A DNA stretch of 64,000 nucleotides, from IMG/VR virus record IMGVR_UViG_3300027763_002006, positions 28,216-92,215 of that record; one strand, given 5' to 3'. This document shows, one piece after another, positions 27,027-61,003 of the stretch (position 1 is its first letter; every line of letters begins with the position of its first letter). Under the pieces are notes generated by a model. It was given only the letters and a program-made list of their open reading frames with translations. It was not told the DNA's origin and ran no database searches. The translations under genes and the position numbers were made by a program. Source of the DNA: a virus.

Positions 27027-27400
27027 AATGTTTTAATCTTTGCTATTAAGTTAGCAACACCATTTTGTCGTCCCATACTCAGTAGTGGCGCAAGTCCGAT
27101 GTCTGTAAGAGTATTTAAACTAAAATCCAGTTGTTGTCGTTCACTGGCTTGATTATACCAATCACAGATCATACAAGCCATGCCATTAACAATACTACTC
27201 TTACCCCATGCGGCAATACGTCCCGATTCTTCCCTGGCTAACCATAACGGACTAGTACAGCCTTTTACCAATGTTTGGTCTGTGTGATATTTGTGTGCTA
27301 GACCCACAGTGCCTGCGCCGTAGTCGATGATCCATTCGTACTTGTCCATGGCATCATCTAATTCAAATAAATCTTTAAACATGTTTTGAAAGTCTTGCAT
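27023..27400 (-). CDS. sufE: SufE sulfur acceptor
   Basis: The 125-residue protein is a compact SufE. Cys48 in the VKGCTSPLWL loop is the persulfide acceptor that takes sulfur from SufS. The N-terminal MFKDLFELDDAMDKYEWIID and a C-terminal GLAPLLSMGRQNG stretch fit the family. It overlaps sufS by 26 bases and sufT by four. The pair would form the sulfur-donor arm of the phage Fe-S machine. Confidence 0.9.
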   Translation of the reverse strand: MQDFQNMFKDLFELDDAMDKYEWIIDYGAGTVGLAHKYHTDQTLVKGCTSPLWLAREESGRIAAWGKSSIVNGMACMICDWYNQASERQQLDFSLNTLTDIGLAPLLSMGRQNGVANLIAKIKTL

Positions 27401-28559
27401 GTATCTCCCCTAGGCTGTCAAATGCTTGTTCTATTTCTTGTCTGGTAGTATAACAAGCCCAACTAAGTCTTAACAGGCCATTGTTACTAATTTGTGCTAT
27501 CAGTGGTTCTGCACACAATTTTCCACTGCGAATCATAATGTTCTTGGCATCCAGCATCATTGTATAATCTTCTACTTCGCCAACAACCGGATCTAAGCAG
27601 ATTAGTCCGGAGTCTGTTCGACTAGCCGGAGTAAATTGTGCCAAGGATATGTGGTCGTTGGTAATTCTAGCAAGTCCGATATCATGAGATTCTATTTCAT
27701 CGTGATGTTCGATTAACCAATTAACGAGTTTAGGCAGTGTGCAAATAGCCGCAAGATTCTGTGTACCACTTTCAAACTTGCCGGCATTGGTTTGCCAAGT
27801 CACTGAATCCACGCTTACACTGGTAACTGTGCCGCCGCCCGGACGTACTGGATTGAAATTTAGCCACACTGGATCTATCAGCAAACATCCCAGGCCCATA
27901 GGTCCGTAAACTTTGTGCCAACTCCAAGCAACAAAGTCGAATCCACTGATGTCTATTCTACGCTTACTAACGATTTGACTAGCGTCAATTACACTCACTG
28001 CCGCAACATCCAGGGCAATCTTTTTAATTCCATCTAAATCGTTGACCAGTCCAAGGACATTGCTAACAGCATTTACAGCAATGACTTTTGCCACGGCCAT
28101 TGGTTCTGCTTTAATTTTTGTTTTTAAATCATTTAAATCTAAACGGCCATCTTTGTCTAACTCAATGAAAACAACTCGCCATTTAGCATTACCAGACTGT
28201 GTCCAGGGCAAGATTAAACTGTGATGACTATCAATGCCAACAAATACTACACCGGATGACATTGCACTCATAATCATTGACGCGGCATCATTCAATCCCT
28301 GTGTCGTGCCACTGTTAAACACAATACGCTGTTCGGGTTTGTTAATGTTTAACCATTTACCTATGAGTTCTTTGCTAGATTGATATTGTTGGTCAACATA
28401 AGTGCCCATGCTATTGCCGCTTCGATGTGCATTGCTTTTATTACTCAACATAAAGTCTTGCATATCTTCGACAACGGTGTACAATGTTTGACTTGTGGCT
28501 GCACTGTCAAGATAAATTATATCTTGTCTACGTTTGAAGAAAGGAAAATATTCACGCAT
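27375..28559 (-). CDS. sufS: SufS-type cysteine desulfurase
   Basis: This is a 394-residue PLP enzyme of class V. Lys216 in AWSWHKVYGP binds PLP, and Cys349 in IRSGKLCAEPL carries the persulfide, matching type II (SufS) desulfurases. The front has the usual IIYLDSAATSQT and NAHRSGNSMG blocks. It strips sulfur from cysteine for SufE. Length is near that of bacterial SufS (about 406). It overlaps sufD by eight bases. Confidence 0.93.
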   Translation of the reverse strand: MREYFPFFKRRQDIIYLDSAATSQTLYTVVEDMQDFMLSNKSNAHRSGNSMGTYVDQQYQSSKELIGKWLNINKPEQRIVFNSGTTQGLNDAASMIMSAMSSGVVFVGIDSHHSLILPWTQSGNAKWRVVFIELDKDGRLDLNDLKTKIKAEPMAVAKVIAVNAVSNVLGLVNDLDGIKKIALDVAAVSVIDASQIVSKRRIDISGFDFVAWSWHKVYGPMGLGCLLIDPVWLNFNPVRPGGGTVTSVSVDSVTWQTNAGKFESGTQNLAAICTLPKLVNWLIEHHDEIESHDIGLARITNDHISLAQFTPASRTDSGLICLDPVVGEVEDYTMMLDAKNIMIRSGKLCAEPLIAQISNNGLLRLSWACYTTRQEIEQAFDSLGEIHARLSKHV

Positions 28560-29629: not shown

Positions 29630-29927
29630 TTAATAAAACTTCCAGTTCGCCAGCTTGGTACATTTCCATCATAATATCACTACCGCCAATGAATTCGCCC
29701 TTGATATATAATTGTGGAACAGTGGGCCAATTGCTGAATTGTTTGATGTTTGATCTCAAAGCATTGTCGGCTAAAACATTGCGACTTTCAAATTGTTCAA
29801 CATTACAAGCTCGTAAAATTTTTGTGGCCTGCTGACTGAATCCGCATTCTGGAAATTGTGGCGTACCTTTCATAAACAGTACTACCTTGTTTGTTTCTAC
29901 CAATTGTTTAATCTCTTCTAAGTTCAT
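29622..29927 (-). CDS. grxD: Monothiol glutaredoxin (Grx4/GrxD-type, CGFS)
   Basis: This is a 101-residue protein. The active site CGFS (28-31), the upstream [12 protein letters not shown] context and the [19 protein letters not shown] block are exactly those of monothiol glutaredoxins, which carry [2Fe-2S] clusters with glutathione. It is not a disulfide reductase. It sits between sufB and sufC with overlaps of four and eight bases, so it likely passes clusters between scaffold and carriers. Confidence 0.93.
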
Positions 29928-31339
29928 CCTATGCTTCCTTCCATGGTTACTGCTAGTAATTTATTCGCTTCCGCCGCAAATTCTAAAGGCAATGTGTTTA
30001 ATACACTACGGCAAAAGCCGTTGACAATGGCACTTGCTGCCTGCTCAGGATCTAATCCTCTAGTGGCTAGATAATATAATTCTTCATCACTTACTCTGCC
30101 TGTTGTTGCTTCATGCTCAATTTGCGCCGAATCGTTTCTGCAATCTGTGTAAGGAACAGTATTGCTACGACTGTTGTCGCCAATCATCAAACTATCGCAT
30201 TGCGTGTAGTTACGAGCATTTTTAGCACCTGGATTCATTCGCACAAGTCCACGATAAGTCATGGTGCTGTTACCTATGCTAATACCTTTGCTGATAATTT
30301 TACTGCGAGTATTAGCACCGATGTGAATCATTTTTGTACCAGTGTCAGCTTGTTGATGACCTTTGGTAACGGCCACTGAGTAAAACTCTCCGGTACTCCC
30401 TTCCCCTTGCAGTATGCAACTTGGGTACTTCCAGGTAATGGCTGATCCTGTTTCCACCTGAGTCCAACTAACTCTACTTTTAACTCCACGACAGTGGGCA
30501 CGTTTTGTGACAAAGTTGTAAACGCCACCGACCCCGTGTTCGTTGCCTGGGTACCAATTTTGTACAGTTGAATATTTAATCTCTGCCCTATCAAGGGTAA
30601 TAAGTTCGACGACTGCGGCATGTAACTGATTCTCGTCACGTTGGGGTGCTGTACATCCTTCCAAGTAAGATACATAACTATCCTTGTCTGCTATAATTAA
30701 GGTGCGTTCGAACTGACCGCTACCTGCACTATTAATTCTAAAATAAGTGCTTAACTCCAAAGGGCATCGTTTACCTTCTGGAATATATACAAAACTGCCA
30801 TCACTGAACACTGCGGAGTTGATACAGGCAAACCAATTGTCACCTTGAGGTACAACTGAGCCTAAATATTCTTTAACTAGTTCTGGATGATCTTGTACTG
30901 CTTCTGTAAAACTGCAAAAGATAATTCCTTCTTCTGCTAGTTTAGCTTTGTATGTTGTGCCAATACTGACACTGTCAAACACAGCATCAACTGCTACACC
31001 TGCAAGTTTAGCACGTTCATGTAATGGGATACCTAGACGTTCAAAGTCATCTAAAATCTCCTGCGGGACTTCATCTAAACTTTTAAATTGTTTCTTAGGA
31101 CGACTGTGATAGTAAATGTTATCATAGTCTGGGCGTGTGTATTTTAACTCGGCCCAATCTGGCTCCTTCATAGAACTAAGTTTATCTAACGCACCGAGTC
31201 TAAACTCTAGTAGCCAATTAGGTTCATTGTTCTTAGCACTGATAAGTCTGACAGTGTTTTCATTCAAGCCTTTGCCTGTCAATTCACTTTCGACATTAGT
31301 AGTAAACCCTGCGGTGTATTCTTGCTCTAATTCATTCAT
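29924..31339 (-). CDS. sufB: SufB Fe-S scaffold
   Basis: This is a 471-residue protein, near the full length of bacterial SufB (about 495). The start at 31339 (MNELEQEY) overlaps the upstream stop as ATGA; the longer frame start upstream is less likely. Key blocks: [13 protein letters not shown] (228-240), [11 protein letters not shown] with Cys381, and [20 protein letters not shown] with His409-Glu410 region. These are residues linked to cluster assembly and sulfur acceptance. With mini-SufD and SufC it would build clusters de novo. Confidence 0.93.
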
Positions 31340-31539
31340 CGTTTTAATATATCGAACATGTTGCCATATTCGTATCGTGACCAATCATCGTGATCAACAT
31401 AGGTGTTGATTTTTCTGCGATAAATCCGCTTACCCCAAACACGTTCATTATCGACGGTGTAAACTGGATGCCAAGCAAACCAAATCGTCCAAGGTGCCAT
31501 TTTTATCTTTCTAGCAACATTGCCAATGGGATCAAACAT
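31336..31539 (-). CDS. Unknown 67-residue protein before sufB
   Basis: The start at 31539 overlaps the upstream stop (TAATG) with GGTGGAG upstream as ribosome site; an earlier GTG at 31548 is possible. The protein is Trp/Tyr/Arg-rich ([21 protein letters not shown]). It overlaps sufB by four bases. Conserved-type small phage protein; function not known. Confidence 0.6.
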
Positions 31540-38679: not shown

Positions 38680-39278
38680 TTTTTAAATAATAACGCAGAA
38701 GCAATGATTAATGCTGTTTGTGCCGCTTCTACATCACTGGGCTGTTCTTTCCAACCTACACTGATTTGTCCTATGAATACACCAGGCTCTGCTGGTACAC
38801 TAATACGACACATATAATTTACACCAGCTTCTTTATAAGTAAAGCCAATGAGACTCTGCGGCTTAAGATATGGACTACAAGGAATTTTACCGGACATTAG
38901 TCCTATGACATCATTGTTGTTGTCATAGTTTTTACTAAACAGCCCAACGTCTAATCCATTGTGTTCTTTAATCTTTCCGCCATTGCGTGTGGCCAAGAAC
39001 ACAATTTTTCTTGTGTTTATTAATGTGTTGACTTCCATGATAGACACAAGTTCTATGTCTGTGTGCTTCAACAAGAAATTATATGCTTCTTCATACTGAC
39101 CATTCATCTTGGGCAATGCCTGCTGAGCACGGTAGCTGGCCATGAAGTTATCCTTTTCAGAATAAACAATCCAGCCACCGAATCCTAATATACACAGGAA
39201 CACAACAGTAAATAGGCGAAATGGACTTTCGCCTATGTATGTCAATAAACTTAAAAGAAAGTCTTTAAGTTTGTCCAT
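38676..39278 (-). CDS. Membrane-anchored protein with soluble domain
   Basis: The ATG at 39278 (MDKLKDFLL) is preferred over an earlier GTG at 39296. One span (about residues 19-42) precedes a soluble domain with SIMEVNTLINTRKIVFLAT, DNNNDVIGLMSGKI and CRISVPAEPGVFIGQISVGW, and a final hydrophobic AALIIASALLF run. Two Cys (PCSPYL and YMCRIS) could be a disulfide. Function is unknown. It overlaps the symporter end and the micro-gene. Confidence 0.55.
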   Translation of the reverse strand: MDKLKDFLLSLLTYIGESPFRLFTVVFLCILGFGGWIVYSEKDNFMASYRAQQALPKMNGQYEEAYNFLLKHTDIELVSIMEVNTLINTRKIVFLATRNGGKIKEHNGLDVGLFSKNYDNNNDVIGLMSGKIPCSPYLKPQSLIGFTYKEAGVNYMCRISVPAEPGVFIGQISVGWKEQPSDVEAAQTALIIASALLFKK

Positions 39279-40539
39279 CTTCTTGTTCTTTGTCACAGAC
39301 GAATGCTGTTACTGCGACATTTCCATGTACGTGACTTGCTGTGCGAATCATGTCCATTAGTGGATCAACTGCAATCAATAATACTAATACAGCTTCGCTG
39401 GGTAGTTTTAACAAGTCACAGACAACTGCTACTGTGGCCACCGTTAAGATACCTGTTGTACCTGCACTTGCTAATCCTGCTAAAATGCTACCAAACAATA
39501 CAACTGCTAGTCCTGTCAAGCCTAATGGTGCATCATAGATGTTGGCAATAAACACTGTGGCAATAGCATAGTAAACAATACTACCAATACGGTTAACAGT
39601 GAAACTTAGTGGAACAGTTAGTTCAACTCCACCTTTGTCGAACTTCAACTTGTGTAGTGCTTCTTGTGCATATGGGATACAAGCTAGACTACTACGTGAA
39701 CTCACAGCAACAATTAATGTTTCTTTAGTTTCACGGATAACAGTGGCAAGGCTCAATCCACTACGCATCCAAATTACTACTGTACCTAGAGCAATCACTA
39801 AGAATCCACCAATTGCTTGTTGGAATACAAAGTCAAACATAGTCATAAAAATACCAACGCCAACTTTACCCACCTGTGATGAAATCATGGCTAATAGTGC
39901 AATTGGTAGGAAGTAATTTAGGAATTTAAAAATACTAATACTTGCTTGTTGAACGCTCTTTAGAACTTCAACCAACATACGTTGACCCTCGGTTTTTAAG
40001 TGTCCTAATGCTACACCAAAGATTAAACAGAAGATAACGATCTTTAAACTCTCACCATTGTTTAATGTGTTGAAAATGTTTTCTGGGATAAACTTTTCTG
40101 CCATTTTACCAGCACTAACTTCTGCTGCCACTGGCATTGGTTCTTTAAGAGTGATGTTCAAATCAGTGCCACTGTCTTTGTCATTGACTAAAACACCAAG
40201 TTGTGTTTTCTTTTCAGGAGTCATTTCACTGCCTGTGATAACAACTGTACCTACTCCAATAACTGCGGCAATAAACATACTGCTGACAAAACCAATAATA
40301 ATTCTGCGAATTAAAGTTTGACTGCCTTCTTTTTGTAGTAAGCCAATGATACCAACTAGAATAGTTGCTAACAAGAATGGCAGTACAACTACCTTCAACA
40401 AACTAATATAGATGCTGCCAATACTGTCAAGGCCTATGCTGAACTCAGGAGCATACACTCCGCTTAAAATACCTACGATGATTGATCCTAAAATAGTCCA
40501 AGGACTAGTCAGGAAACTTTTTAAATGTGCTGTTGTCAT
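39265..40539 (-). CDS. Dicarboxylate/amino acid:cation symporter (GltP/DctA family)
   Basis: This is a 424-residue, about eight-span transporter. It has the serine-rich loop AVSSRSSLACIP, the second hairpin SAGTTGILTV, and the last helix AVDPLMDMIRTASHVHGN. In well-studied members TM7 has NMDGT and TM8 has NVTGD; here they read NRIGS and HVHGN, so cation sites differ. Substrates are probably Asp/Glu or C4 dicarboxylates. Phage-encoded transporters of this type are unusual. It lies ten bases after the solute-binding protein gene. Confidence 0.88.
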   Translation of the reverse strand: MTTAHLKSFLTSPWTILGSIIVGILSGVYAPEFSIGLDSIGSIYISLLKVVVLPFLLATILVGIIGLLQKEGSQTLIRRIIIGFVSSMFIAAVIGVGTVVITGSEMTPEKKTQLGVLVNDKDSGTDLNITLKEPMPVAAEVSAGKMAEKFIPENIFNTLNNGESLKIVIFCLIFGVALGHLKTEGQRMLVEVLKSVQQASISIFKFLNYFLPIALLAMISSQVGKVGVGIFMTMFDFVFQQAIGGFLVIALGTVVIWMRSGLSLATVIRETKETLIVAVSSRSSLACIPYAQEALHKLKFDKGGVELTVPLSFTVNRIGSIVYYAIATVFIANIYDAPLGLTGLAVVLFGSILAGLASAGTTGILTVATVAVVCDLLKLPSEAVLVLLIAVDPLMDMIRTASHVHGNVAVTAFVCDKEQEDGQT

Positions 40540-56828: not shown

Positions 56829-57412
56829 TTAAATAAAAATTCACTGTCCAACTTTTCGTATATCAGCCATTGCTTAGTATAGTTGATTTCTAATGGAAAG
56901 TCAAGTACTGTCGCGCCATTATAGAATAATCGTCGCGGAGTTCGGCCAGAAATTCTAGTAGCACTTTCTCCGGCACGAGTTCTAATACATACTTTGATTA
57001 AATTTTTATTATAATCATTAAATGTCAATGTAATAAATTTACATTTGTTTTTAACTGCCCATGCCTTACATGCAGGGAGAATGTATTCGGCAACTAATAA
57101 TTTGTTTCTATGTTCAGTATGTGCCCATGTTCTGATACCTGCCATTGCAATATCTTCGGTCCATTCACTGAAGTAAACGCCGCCGCTGGCCACTGGTAAT
57201 TTATCGTCAAACAACACAAAGTATTTACCGTGATCGAATTTATTTTCTACTTCTAATATATAGCGCAGAGTATTATTTTCATTTCGCCAAGTTTTGCTGT
57301 GCATATTGACCATGGCAGGACTGGTATCTTTTTGACATTCTGATTCTATAGTGTCCCAAAAATGTTGTAGTTCTGATTTGGTTAATTTATTGTATTCTTT
57401 TACTTTGTACAT
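56771..57412 (-). CDS. GNAT-like acyltransferase
   Basis: This is a 213-residue protein. KYFVLFDDKLPVASGGVYFS and IAMAGIRTWAHTEHRNKLLV fit a GNAT core, with the next helix EYILPACKAWAVKNKCKFIT. The acceptor site is not clear. It could modify a ribosomal or tRNA target, but this is inference. It overlaps the desaturase gene by 13 bases. Confidence 0.55.
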   Translation of the reverse strand: MYKVKEYNKLTKSELQHFWDTIESECQKDTSPAMVNMHSKTWRNENNTLRYILEVENKFDHGKYFVLFDDKLPVASGGVYFSEWTEDIAMAGIRTWAHTEHRNKLLVAEYILPACKAWAVKNKCKFITLTFNDYNKNLIKVCIRTRAGESATRISGRTPRRLFYNGATVLDFPLEINYTKQWLIYEKLDSEFLFNWEEFKWQDKIKIVKRKLG

Positions 57413-58155
57413 ACTAGTTTAATTACCCATGTCAAAGGATCTATTTCCCAGAATTTATATGTTGTGCTGGGATTCTTTGCGTCGCCGTGATGATTATTGT
57501 GCCATGCTTCGCCTAGTATAATGGGCCAAAGCCATGCATTATTTCTACTATGGTCTTTTGTTTCGTAATTACGATAACCAAATTTGTGACCAAAATAATT
57601 AAAATTGCTGGTACTAAGTTGTATTAGCATTGCAGGCACTAGCCAAGCCCAATAAAATAATTGTAGATCTATTAAAGCTAATATAGAAATTACGAATAGT
57701 AATAAAATCATGTACCATTTATGTATAAACAATTGGGCCGGTGTCATTAATTCTTTAACCAAGAATATCTTCATTTCACCTTCTTGTTGTTTCATATGTC
57801 CAAAGCCAAACAATTTATATCCTAAATTATGCGGGCTATGCGGGTCTTTGTCTTGGTCACTGTATGCATGATGCAATCTATGTAAATAGACCCAGCCTAA
57901 AATACTGCCGCGACCTGTTAATAAAGCAATAACAGAGAACAACCATTTAAGCACAGGGTTCAGTGCAAAACTTTTATGACTATAATATCTATGAAATGTC
58001 ATCCATACTCCCAGGATGTTCAAAACATAAAAACTTGTCAACATGATTAGTATGTTGCTTAATGTATAATCAACAAAAAACAATCCAACTATGCTGTTAA
58101 TAAAAACAAAAATAGTTAGTAGATTTATATTTCTACTTGTGGATCCAAATATCAT
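57400..58155 (-). CDS. Fatty-acid desaturase (acyl-CoA type)
   Basis: This is a 251-residue membrane enzyme. Histidine boxes are present: HRYYSH (55-60), HRLHH (92-96) and a C-terminal HNNHH, which bind two irons. The membrane spans fit the delta-9 type. It would introduce double bonds in host membrane lipids. Overlaps its paralogue by four bases. Confidence 0.9.
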   Translation of the reverse strand: MIFGSTSRNINLLTIFVFINSIVGLFFVDYTLSNILIMLTSFYVLNILGVWMTFHRYYSHKSFALNPVLKWLFSVIALLTGRGSILGWVYLHRLHHAYSDQDKDPHSPHNLGYKLFGFGHMKQQEGEMKIFLVKELMTPAQLFIHKWYMILLLFVISILALIDLQLFYWAWLVPAMLIQLSTSNFNYFGHKFGYRNYETKDHSRNNAWLWPIILGEAWHNNHHGDAKNPSTTYKFWEIDPLTWVIKLVCTK

Positions 58156-58931
58156 CGTCTAATTAATTCAATGACTCTGGCCGCAGGATCAAATTCCCAC
58201 CACTTGCCACTGGTGCCACTTCCAAAGTCATAGTTACCAGGACGAGCATGATGGTTATTATGCCAACCTTCACCAAAGGTTAGTATTGCATTAATCCAAA
58301 GATTTCGACTGTTATCGCTGGTTTGGAAATTCTTATATCCCCACTTATGATTTGTATAGTTGCTGATAGTACTGCTCCATACGCTGAACACCGCAGGGAT
58401 AATAACAACGTGCATGGCCAACACGGGATCTATAACAGCCCAGAATATTGTCCATAATAATAACAGACCAAAGTACCACTTGTGCATAAAGATATGATAC
58501 TTGTCAAAAATCAAGTGTCGTATTTTCCATTTGTTTGGCTCATAGTCATAGGCAGCTACCAACATCTTGGGACCACTGACCATGGGACTATGTGGGTCGC
58601 CTGGCTTGTCACTGTATTTGTGATGATCTCTGTGCATACCAACCCAGCCAATGGCACTGCCTGTAAATGCCAACGCTCCCCAAGTGGCACAAAAGTATTC
58701 CCAGAATTTACTGGTCTTAAAACTTTTATGTGTTAATAATCTATGAAAGCCAATGCTGATACCAAGGCCGCCTATGCCCACATACATCAGCACACTTAGT
58801 AACCACAGTAGACCAACCTGCGGTAAAAGGAATGCATAGAGTAGAACCAGTGCTGTGGCACTGAGTTGTACATATGGCAAGTACTGCGTGTTAGATGCAA
58901 GAGCATTATTGATGATTCGTTTGTAGGACAT
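58152..58931 (-). CDS. Fatty-acid desaturase (acyl-CoA type), second copy
   Basis: This is a 259-residue paralogue of the next gene. Histidine boxes HRLLTH (63-68), HRDHH (100-104) and HNNHH near residues 223-229 are intact. It has five hydrophobic segments. The pair may act on different chain lengths or positions. It starts the chain that ends with rpoZ; an AATAAATATC late-type box is at 58936-58945. Confidence 0.9.
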   Translation of the reverse strand: MSYKRIINNALASNTQYLPYVQLSATALVLLYAFLLPQVGLLWLLSVLMYVGIGGLGISIGFHRLLTHKSFKTSKFWEYFCATWGALAFTGSAIGWVGMHRDHHKYSDKPGDPHSPMVSGPKMLVAAYDYEPNKWKIRHLIFDKYHIFMHKWYFGLLLLWTIFWAVIDPVLAMHVVIIPAVFSVWSSTISNYTNHKWGYKNFQTSDNSRNLWINAILTFGEGWHNNHHARPGNYDFGSGTSGKWWEFDPAARVIELIRR

Positions 58932-59713: not shown

Positions 59714-59787
59714 TGGAGCGGAGTGAGAGAATCGAACTCTCGACCGAAGATTGGAAATCTGCTGTTTTGCCATTAAACTAACCCCGC
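59714..59787 (-). tRNA. tRNA-Gly (anticodon TCC)
   Basis: A 74-base cloverleaf with encoded CCA. Acceptor GCGGGGT pairs with ACTCCGC (one G-T wobble). D stem GTTT/AAAC. The anticodon loop is TTTCCAA. The anticodon stem GCAGA/TCTTC has a mismatch (C28 with T42), an oddity. T arm GAGAG-TTCGATT-CTCTC. It reads GGA and GGG. Confidence 0.9.
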
Positions 59788-60120
59788 TGACTTTATAGGT
59801 GCTCTCTGTGACGCTTGAATTCCTGGTAGCCCCACTCTTCATGGCCGGTCCTTGTCATGGTCGACATTGACAAGTATTTCGGTGTTCCATTGTAGCTACT
59901 ACAGAAAGCACGTATAAAGTGTTTAGCTACTCACACCACATGAGCCCTAAACTGAGCGGTTACTCTGTCCATAACATTTGTTCTTTTGGGCAGGTGTTAT
60001 ACCTTACCTAATGCGTTCCCGCCACTCCACAACAGAGCACAGATGGTCATTGCACTACAAACCTAGCACTCTTTATGGTGACTGCCCCACCCACTTTAGA
60101 CGTCAAAGTGTAACCGGGTT
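59788..60120 (-). ncRNA. Candidate structured non-coding RNA between tRNA-Gly and tRNA-Met
   Basis: No convincing gene is found in this stretch of over 300 bases. It folds by eye into several helices. A 20-base arm at 59790-59809 pairs with 59901-59920 in 18 of 20 positions. Inside it is CTTGTCA/TGACAAG (59851-59857 with 59868-59874). Next are GTTTAG/CTAAAC with an inner CTCA/TGAG (59921-59952), ATAACA/TGTTAT (59971-59976, 59995-60000) and CACTTT/AAAGTG (60092-60110). GGGCAG (59988-59993) could pair with CTGCCC (60082-60087). The strand is set from the flanking tRNAs. Not tRNA, tmRNA or RNase P RNA by motif. Confidence 0.55.
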
Positions 60121-60303: not shown

Positions 60304-60379
60304 TGGTTGCGGGGGAAGGACTCGAACCTCCGTCTTCCAGGTTATGAGCCTGATAGTCTACCAACTGACGTACCCCGCG
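60304..60379 (-). tRNA. Initiator-type tRNA-fMet (anticodon CAT)
   Basis: A 76-base cloverleaf with encoded CCA. The acceptor is CGCGGGG with CCCCGCA, so position 1 C faces A72. This mismatch is the hallmark of bacterial initiator tRNA, and the whole acceptor with AACCA equals the E. coli initiator. The anticodon loop CTCATAA is also identical. D-stem pair 11-24 is G-C (purine-pyrimidine, initiator-like). One hallmark is weaker: the anticodon stem has A29-T41 in place of the first of three G-C pairs. An elongator reading would lose the invariant T8. Confidence 0.85.
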
Positions 60380-60974: not shown

Positions 60975-61003
60975 ATTATACAACAAAATAAAAACAGAGT
61001 CAA
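60975..61003 (-). promoter_or_regulatory. Sigma70 promoter of 189-aa gene
   Basis: TTGACT (60998-61003), 17 bases, TATAAT (60975-60980) on the minus strand. The predicted leader is about ten bases and just includes the AAGGA ribosome site. Confidence 0.8.

What the first reader, a model, noticed from the sequence alone, without database searches (positions are those of the whole stretch)
59788..60120. Undescribed structured RNA next to tRNA genes
This non-coding block has an 18-of-20 complementary arm (59790-59809 with 59901-59920), nested and adjacent hairpins, and a possible 6-bp pseudoknot (59988-59993 with 60082-60087). It begins two bases from tRNA-Gly, so RNase P cutting would free its 3' end. 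T4 makes stable RNAs of unknown role from its tRNA cluster, a parallel. It does not show tmRNA or RNase P RNA motifs.
Basis: partly seen in the sequence, partly recalled or inferred. Interest (0 to 1): 0.78.

Follow-up and report, generated by a model that had tools for sequence, protein, structure and literature searches.

The report
New structured RNA in phage tRNA arrays
Next to a tRNA gene this giant-phage fragment carries a roughly 330-base structured RNA of a class absent from the RNA family database; well over a hundred uncultivated large phages carry relatives whose paired bases change together, so it is a real molecule, but its job is unknown.

Summary
It is one end-to-end RNA on the minus strand, the strand of the flanking tRNAs. 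It has a 204-nt core (60119-59916) and a swappable 3' arm (59920-59790) ending two bases before tRNA-Gly. Twenty of 22 large contigs (92-355 kb) carry the core; some also carry a second, divergent paralogue. No Rfam family, GenBank phage record or bacterial genome searched matched it. Covariation over 79 cores is strong: 37 pairs, 522 cells with both sides changed against 180±12 shuffled, slid controls far lower. In the window-type arm a tRNA-like T-loop is invariant and the apical loop keeps a 6-nt palindrome while its sequence changes. Parts are shuffled among phages. The RNA sits flush between tRNA genes, or after a stop codon, always on the tRNA strand. Best reading: a stable trans-acting RNA cut out of the tRNA transcript, analogous to but not homologous with GOLLD, ROOL and T4 RNA C/D. 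No transcript was seen and the function is inferred.

The parts
59916..60119 (-). Core RNA, 204 nt, 5' end at 60119
   Evidence: Aligned end to end with 78 relatives (A1); R1 E = 1.8e-50 in the own record; coordinates
60092..60110 (-). P1 hairpin (60110-60105 with 60097-60092); its loop pairs with the leader near 60116-60112 to make pseudoknot PK1 (weak in this sequence: CG:CG or GUU:GAC)
   Evidence: All six P1 pairs show double changes; PK1 own-partner score 8.2 vs 6.66 +/- 0.22 with partners swapped
60045..60063 (-). P3, GGU 60063-60061 with ACC 60047-60045, interleaved with P5 (pseudoknot 2)
   Evidence: 99.2% of cells paired; GC/AU/UA/CG and UA/CG types
60009..60057 (-). P5, UAGUGC 60057-60052 with GCAUUA 60014-60009; hairpin P4 lies between P3 and the 3' strand of P5
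   Evidence: All six pairs show double changes, e.g. UA 56/CG 20, AU 41/UA 31
59972..60007 (-). P6 hairpin (60007-60002 with 59993-59988, register as aligned) whose loop UAACA 59999-59995 pairs with UGUUA 59976-59972 = P7 (pseudoknot 3)
   Evidence: P7 138-171 CG 44/UA 30; 139-170 AU 36/GC 22/UA 6; double changes in all five pairs
59921..59966 (-). P8 (59966-59965 with 59956-59955), P9 (59952-59948 with 59925-59921), P10 (59944-59941 with 59933-59930); P10 loop UGUGGUG with UGG at 59938-59936
   Evidence: 98-100% of cells paired, double changes in each helix. Parts of P8-P10 and UGG were fixed in the search patterns, so their invariance is partly ascertainment
59790..59920 (-). 3' arm (type a), an interchangeable cassette closed by ACUUUAUA..UAUAAAGU, ending 2 nt before tRNA-Gly
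   Evidence: 59 of 69 arms between core and next tRNA fold end to end; alignment A3 of 28 type-a arms
59799..59911 (-). Acceptor-like stem of the arm (59911-59901 with 59809-59799) and T-loop-like UUCAAGC at 59819-59813
   Evidence: UUC-R-A invariant in 28 of 28; several relatives keep an intact T arm such as UUUGG-UUCGAUU-CCAAC
59851..59874 (-). Apical hairpin of the arm (59874-59869 with 59856-59851); loop carries the palindrome GUCGAC 59865-59860, a kissing-loop candidate
   Evidence: A 6-nt palindrome in the apical region of every type-a arm listed: GUCGAC, UCUAGA (3 arms) or CUCGAG (1)
59714..59787 (-). tRNA-Gly (UCC) downstream
   Evidence: ARAGORN; Rfam tRNA
60304..60379 (-). tRNA-Met (CAU) upstream, 185 nt before the core
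   Evidence: ARAGORN
60975..61003 (-). Promoter-like TTGACT-17-TATAAT upstream of the 189-aa gene, tRNA-Met and the RNA
   Evidence: Consensus scan, 11 of 12; not evidence of function

Best explanation
A non-coding RNA gene of a giant phage, embedded in its tRNA array. It is probably transcribed together with neighbouring tRNAs and trimmed by the host's tRNA-processing enzymes: RNase P at the downstream tRNA frees its 3' end, and where an upstream tRNA abuts, 3' maturation of that tRNA frees its 5' end (in this window nothing abuts upstream, so the 5' end is open). It then folds into a compact core of three pseudoknots plus hairpins and persists as a stable trans-acting RNA. The 3' arm, tRNA-derived in this phage, would cap it and may join two copies by a kissing loop. 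The most likely target is tRNA or the translating ribosome, because of position, the tRNA-like arm and a UGG loop complementary to tRNA CCA ends. Shown: existence, structure, family, genomic placement. Inferred: transcription, processing, stability, trans action, dimerisation, target.
For: Covariation over 79 cores: 85.4% of cells paired vs 69.8% shuffled, 522 double-change cells vs 180 +/- 12, score 0.487 vs 0.216 +/- 0.007, slid controls 0.05-0.13; the same with only helices outside the search patterns, 370 vs 141 +/- 11. One strong copy in most of 22 large contigs, some match in 20. Upstream: 51 cores abut a tRNA, all same strand. Downstream: 87 of 87 tRNAs within 200 nt are same strand; 18 abut the core directly, 69 follow an arm or spacer. 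The type-2 paralogue fits between tRNA-Glu and tRNA-Tyr with 1-4 nt on each side in three phages. Many others begin 0-5 nt after a stop codon. T-loop and acceptor-like stem. Palindrome kept while its sequence changes.
Against: No transcript was seen. Compact phage genomes abut everything, so flush boundaries need not mean processing. Many copies follow a protein gene rather than a tRNA, where the 5' end would need another nuclease. The tRNA-like arm is one of several arm types and some cores have none, so it cannot be essential. UGG was fixed in the search patterns and at least one unbiased relative (L010) lacks it. The palindrome rests on about three independent changes.
Confidence: 0.55

Rival explanations
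1. Cis-acting element of the tRNA operon: a structured spacer, processing signal or insulator that guides or protects tRNA maturation and has no life of its own.
For: Always on the tRNA strand and mostly directly upstream of a tRNA (87 cases); the arm forms a long stem next to the tRNA 5' end.
Against: Usually one copy per genome although there are many tRNAs; three pseudoknots are far more than a spacer needs; neighbouring tRNAs differ (Gly, Met, Asn, Tyr, others).
Confidence: 0.2
2. A selfish or mobile RNA element: a cassette that inserts at the ends of tRNA or protein genes and spreads between co-infecting phages, with swappable arms.
For: Different insertion contexts, abutting tRNA 3' ends or stop codons; mosaic modules; tandem arms in some phages.
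Against: No associated mobility protein or terminal repeat was noticed in the loci read; mostly single copy; placement often shared (before tRNA-Gly or tRNA-Met); covariation shows selection on the folded RNA.
Confidence: 0.1
3. A homo-oligomeric RNA-only assembly, such as a dimer or cage, working like ROOL and GOLLD (this overlaps with the best explanation, as a specific way it could act).
For: ROOL and GOLLD are also encoded in phages near tRNA islands and assemble without protein (PMC12286853); palindromic loop with compensating changes.
Against: The palindrome is in type-a arms only; no self-complementary loop was noticed in the core; the RNA is about a third to a half their length.
Confidence: 0.15
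4. Chance complementarity in ordinary intergenic DNA.
For: Single-sequence folding is not unusual (z -1.63).
Against: About 120 distinct homologues with massive covariation.
Confidence: 0.01

Closest known systems
GOLLD RNA
   Same: Large structured RNA of phages and prophages near tRNA islands, function unknown, variable region beside a conserved one (PMC12286853)
   Different: Often over 800 nt; no cmscan match at E up to 5 in the window block or up to 1 in relatives
ROOL RNA
   Same: Phage or prophage RNA with several pseudoknots near tRNA islands
   Different: About 660 nt for the studied example; no match
T4 RNA C and RNA D (species 1 and 2)
   Same: Stable RNAs of unknown role beside a phage tRNA cluster
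   Different: 139 and 119 nt; best score with R1 over the T4 cluster 3.3 bits, E 3
tmRNA
   Same: Chain of pseudoknots; the window-type arm has an acceptor-like stem, a T arm and a long helix in place of the anticodon arm
   Different: No tmRNA call or match; no tag frame identified; the tRNA-like part is a detachable 3' arm, not formed by the RNA's two ends
T-box antiterminator and RNase P L15 loop (from general knowledge)
   Same: A loop with UGG or GGU that could pair with a tRNA CCA end
   Different: No Rfam match; UGG pairing here is only inferred

Membership tests
Any Rfam 15 family | Covariance-model match to the core or arm | tested here: not met
   Only tRNAs at gathering threshold; no match over the block at E up to 5; none over the cores of seven relatives at E up to 1
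GOLLD | Match to the GOLLD model and length above about 800 nt | tested here: not met
   about 330 nt in all
GOLLD | Assembly into a nanocage | not testable with these tools
   Needs cryo-EM or native mass measurement
ROOL | Match to the ROOL model | tested here: not met
tmRNA | tmRNA gene call or model match | tested here: not met
   ARAGORN; cmscan
tmRNA | tRNA-like domain with T arm | tested here: inconclusive
   T-loop UUC-R-A in 28 of 28 type-a arms, but other arm types and armless cores exist
RNase P RNA | Model match | tested here: not met
T4 RNA C/D | Sequence and structure homology | tested here: not met
   3.3 bits with filters off
This new class | Covarying P1, P3/P5, P6/P7, P8, P9/P10 | tested here: met
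This new class | Expressed as a discrete stable RNA | not testable with these tools
   No transcript data available

The most novel reading that the evidence does not exclude
A family of phage RNA machines, two paralogous three-pseudoknot RNAs with exchangeable arms, one of them captured from a tRNA, that grip tRNA CCA ends or the ribosome, possibly as kissing-loop dimers, to take over translation or shield tRNAs from host defences.
Probability: 0.2. Interest if true: 0.9.

Novelty: new variant of a known kind. Interest (0 to 1): 0.74.

Why it matters
Structured RNAs carried in phage tRNA islands (GOLLD, ROOL, T4 RNA C/D) have unexplained roles. This is another, apparently unrelated class: compact, built of swappable parts, present in most of the large contigs checked, and absent from every isolate and bacterial genome searched, which may be why it has no Rfam entry. 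Its size suits structural work, and the palindromic loop, UGG loop, tRNA-like arm and tRNA-flanked ends each make a direct prediction. It also makes testable whether giant-phage tRNA arrays carry more than tRNAs.

Tried and rejected
T4 RNA C/D homology: none. Rfam classes, tmRNA and RNase P: none. Apparent RNase P-like motifs (CCGG, ACAGA) noticed by eye were dropped: the GUCCGG strand pairs locally and covaries. Isolated phages: blastn of four members found no homologue of the RNA, only one record matching the tRNA part of the first query, and the model found nothing credible in PA5oct, Paride, Atu_ph07, Phosso, Vibrio 2.275.O, RaK2 or XacN1 (one search used stricter filters). Bacterial genomes: a strict pattern gave none and a looser one gave three chance hits. 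Neighbour proteins beside the RNA gave no functional hint. A four-gamete count between modules was weak because clusters chained, although identical-module/different-module pairs are clear. RNAalifold on the whole core alignment found only P3, P9 and P10, probably because of register shifts and pseudoknots. A script test for arms without a core used a faulty expression; the printed flanks show arms following a core or another arm. A literature search in the held library found no description.

Full report
What was checked. The block lies between tRNA-Met (60304-60379, -) and tRNA-Gly (59714-59787, -). The long complementary arm is present as described and ends two bases from tRNA-Gly. Folding one sequence is unremarkable (z -1.63 and -1.18), so the case rests on relatives.

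Relatives. A 16-mer from the arm and two neighbour proteins found homologues in IMG/VR contigs. A covariance model (R1) finds one strong copy (E about 1e-37 to 1e-52) in most of 22 large contigs of 92-355 kb, only a divergent copy in one, and none in two (20 of 22). Some genomes also hold a second, divergent paralogue at roughly 24-56 bits. No homologue turned up in 50,697 GenBank phage records with four blastn queries or in seven jumbo phages searched with R1. Two scans of 84,980 bacterial and archaeal genomes gave nothing real; those used patterns, so divergent members could be missed. The terminase of one of these phages is 52% identical to that of Pseudomonas jumbo phages PA5oct and Paride; the host is unknown.

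Structure. On 79 cores (A1), 37 pairs in eight helices have 85.4% standard pairs against 69.8% shuffled, and 522 double-change cells against 180 +/- 12; covariation is 0.487 against 0.216 +/- 0.007, and 0.05-0.13 when partners are slid by 1-3 columns. The search patterns fixed some bases of P8-P10, so the count was repeated on P1, P3, P5, P6 and P7 only: 370 against 141 +/- 11, score 0.446 against 0.205. Shuffles ignore relatedness; the slid controls do not. An APC-corrected test ranked pairs of P10, P9, P5, P2 and P7 near the top without being told the structure. P3/P5 and P6/P7 are interleaved, so both are pseudoknots. A third, PK1, pairs the 5' leader with the P1 loop: own partners score 8.2, swapped partners 6.66 +/- 0.22. 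On well-aligned helices G-U outnumbers A-C 65 to 6, which sets the RNA strand as the tRNA strand. P2 and P4 exist as hairpins but change register between module types and were not counted.

The arm. Between core and tRNA lies an arm of one of several unrelated types, sometimes two in tandem, sometimes none. Most begin with ACUUUAU and end with AUAAAGU, and 59 of 69 fold end to end. In the window type, UUC-R-A sits where a tRNA T-loop would be in 28 of 28; several relatives keep a complete T arm and a 7-bp acceptor-like stem. A helix [ACG]UGG:CCA[UG] covaries. The apical loop holds GUCGAC in most, UCUAGA in three and CUCGAG in one: always a palindrome. That pattern suits a kissing dimer but rests on few independent changes.

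Modularity. Pairs of phages share one part at 96-100% identity while another differs by half: L015 and L147 share the first module at 100% but the P6/P7 module at 49%; 46 combinations of four modules occur in 79 sequences. Recombination between co-infecting phages is the simplest cause (inference).

Placement. Of 119 cores, 51 start within 8 nt of an upstream tRNA, all on the same strand; many others start 0-5 nt after a stop codon of varied genes. Downstream, 87 tRNAs lie within 200 nt, all same strand, most often Gly or Met. Type 2 fits between tRNA-Glu and tRNA-Tyr with 1-4 nt at each side in L008, L125 and L136. This is what an RNA trimmed by tRNA-processing enzymes would look like, but compact genomes could give it too. 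Promoter-like sites lie upstream on the same strand in the window (consensus only).

Function. Nothing here shows function. A UGG in the P10 loop is in all aligned cores, but the patterns required it; among members found without the patterns it is usual (L001, L003, L018, L019, L038, L043, L053, L061 and others) and missing in L010. Type-2 copies also keep it though their loop differs. Pairing with tRNA CCA ends is an inference.

Known classes. It is not GOLLD, ROOL, tmRNA, RNase P RNA or T4 RNA C/D by the tests above. It resembles GOLLD and ROOL in being a pseudoknotted phage RNA near tRNA islands (PMC12286853). I therefore call it a new RNA class within a known kind.

Noticed in passing
L008:265-458 (+), L007:4810-5011 (-), L125:14245-14443 (-), L136:2192-2390 (+), L111:5869-6067 (+): Second, divergent paralogue of the RNA, in the same contigs as the main copy; between tRNA-Glu and tRNA-Tyr with 1-4 nt gaps in L008, L125 and L136.
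   Followed up: partly
window 27375-28559 and 29924-31384 (-): Phage fragment carries SufB and a class-V aminotransferase of the cysteine desulfurase type, i.e. parts of an iron-sulfur assembly system.
   Followed up: partly
window 57400-58155 and 58152-58931 (-): Two adjacent fatty acid desaturase genes.
   Followed up: partly
window 39265-40539 (-): Sodium:dicarboxylate symporter gene in a phage fragment.
   Followed up: no
window 61790-61762 (-): Perfect TTGACA-17-TATAAT promoter-like site with extended -10, just upstream of tRNA-Asp.
   Followed up: no
L010, near 13625 (-): Core variant whose P10 loop is UUAUC-GGGA-GAUA and lacks UGG.
   Followed up: no
L007 and L201, directly upstream of the RNA: An ORF of about 80 aa that by eye resembles an RNA polymerase omega subunit ends at the RNA's first base.
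   Followed up: no
L243:2725-3070 (Vibrio phage 2.275.O, 171.2-171.6 kb): tRNA-like sequence with a long insert followed by a further structured-looking stretch with a T-arm-like end; not a member by R1.
   Followed up: no
L113, L132, L141, L005: Two different 3' arm cassettes in tandem after one core.
   Followed up: no
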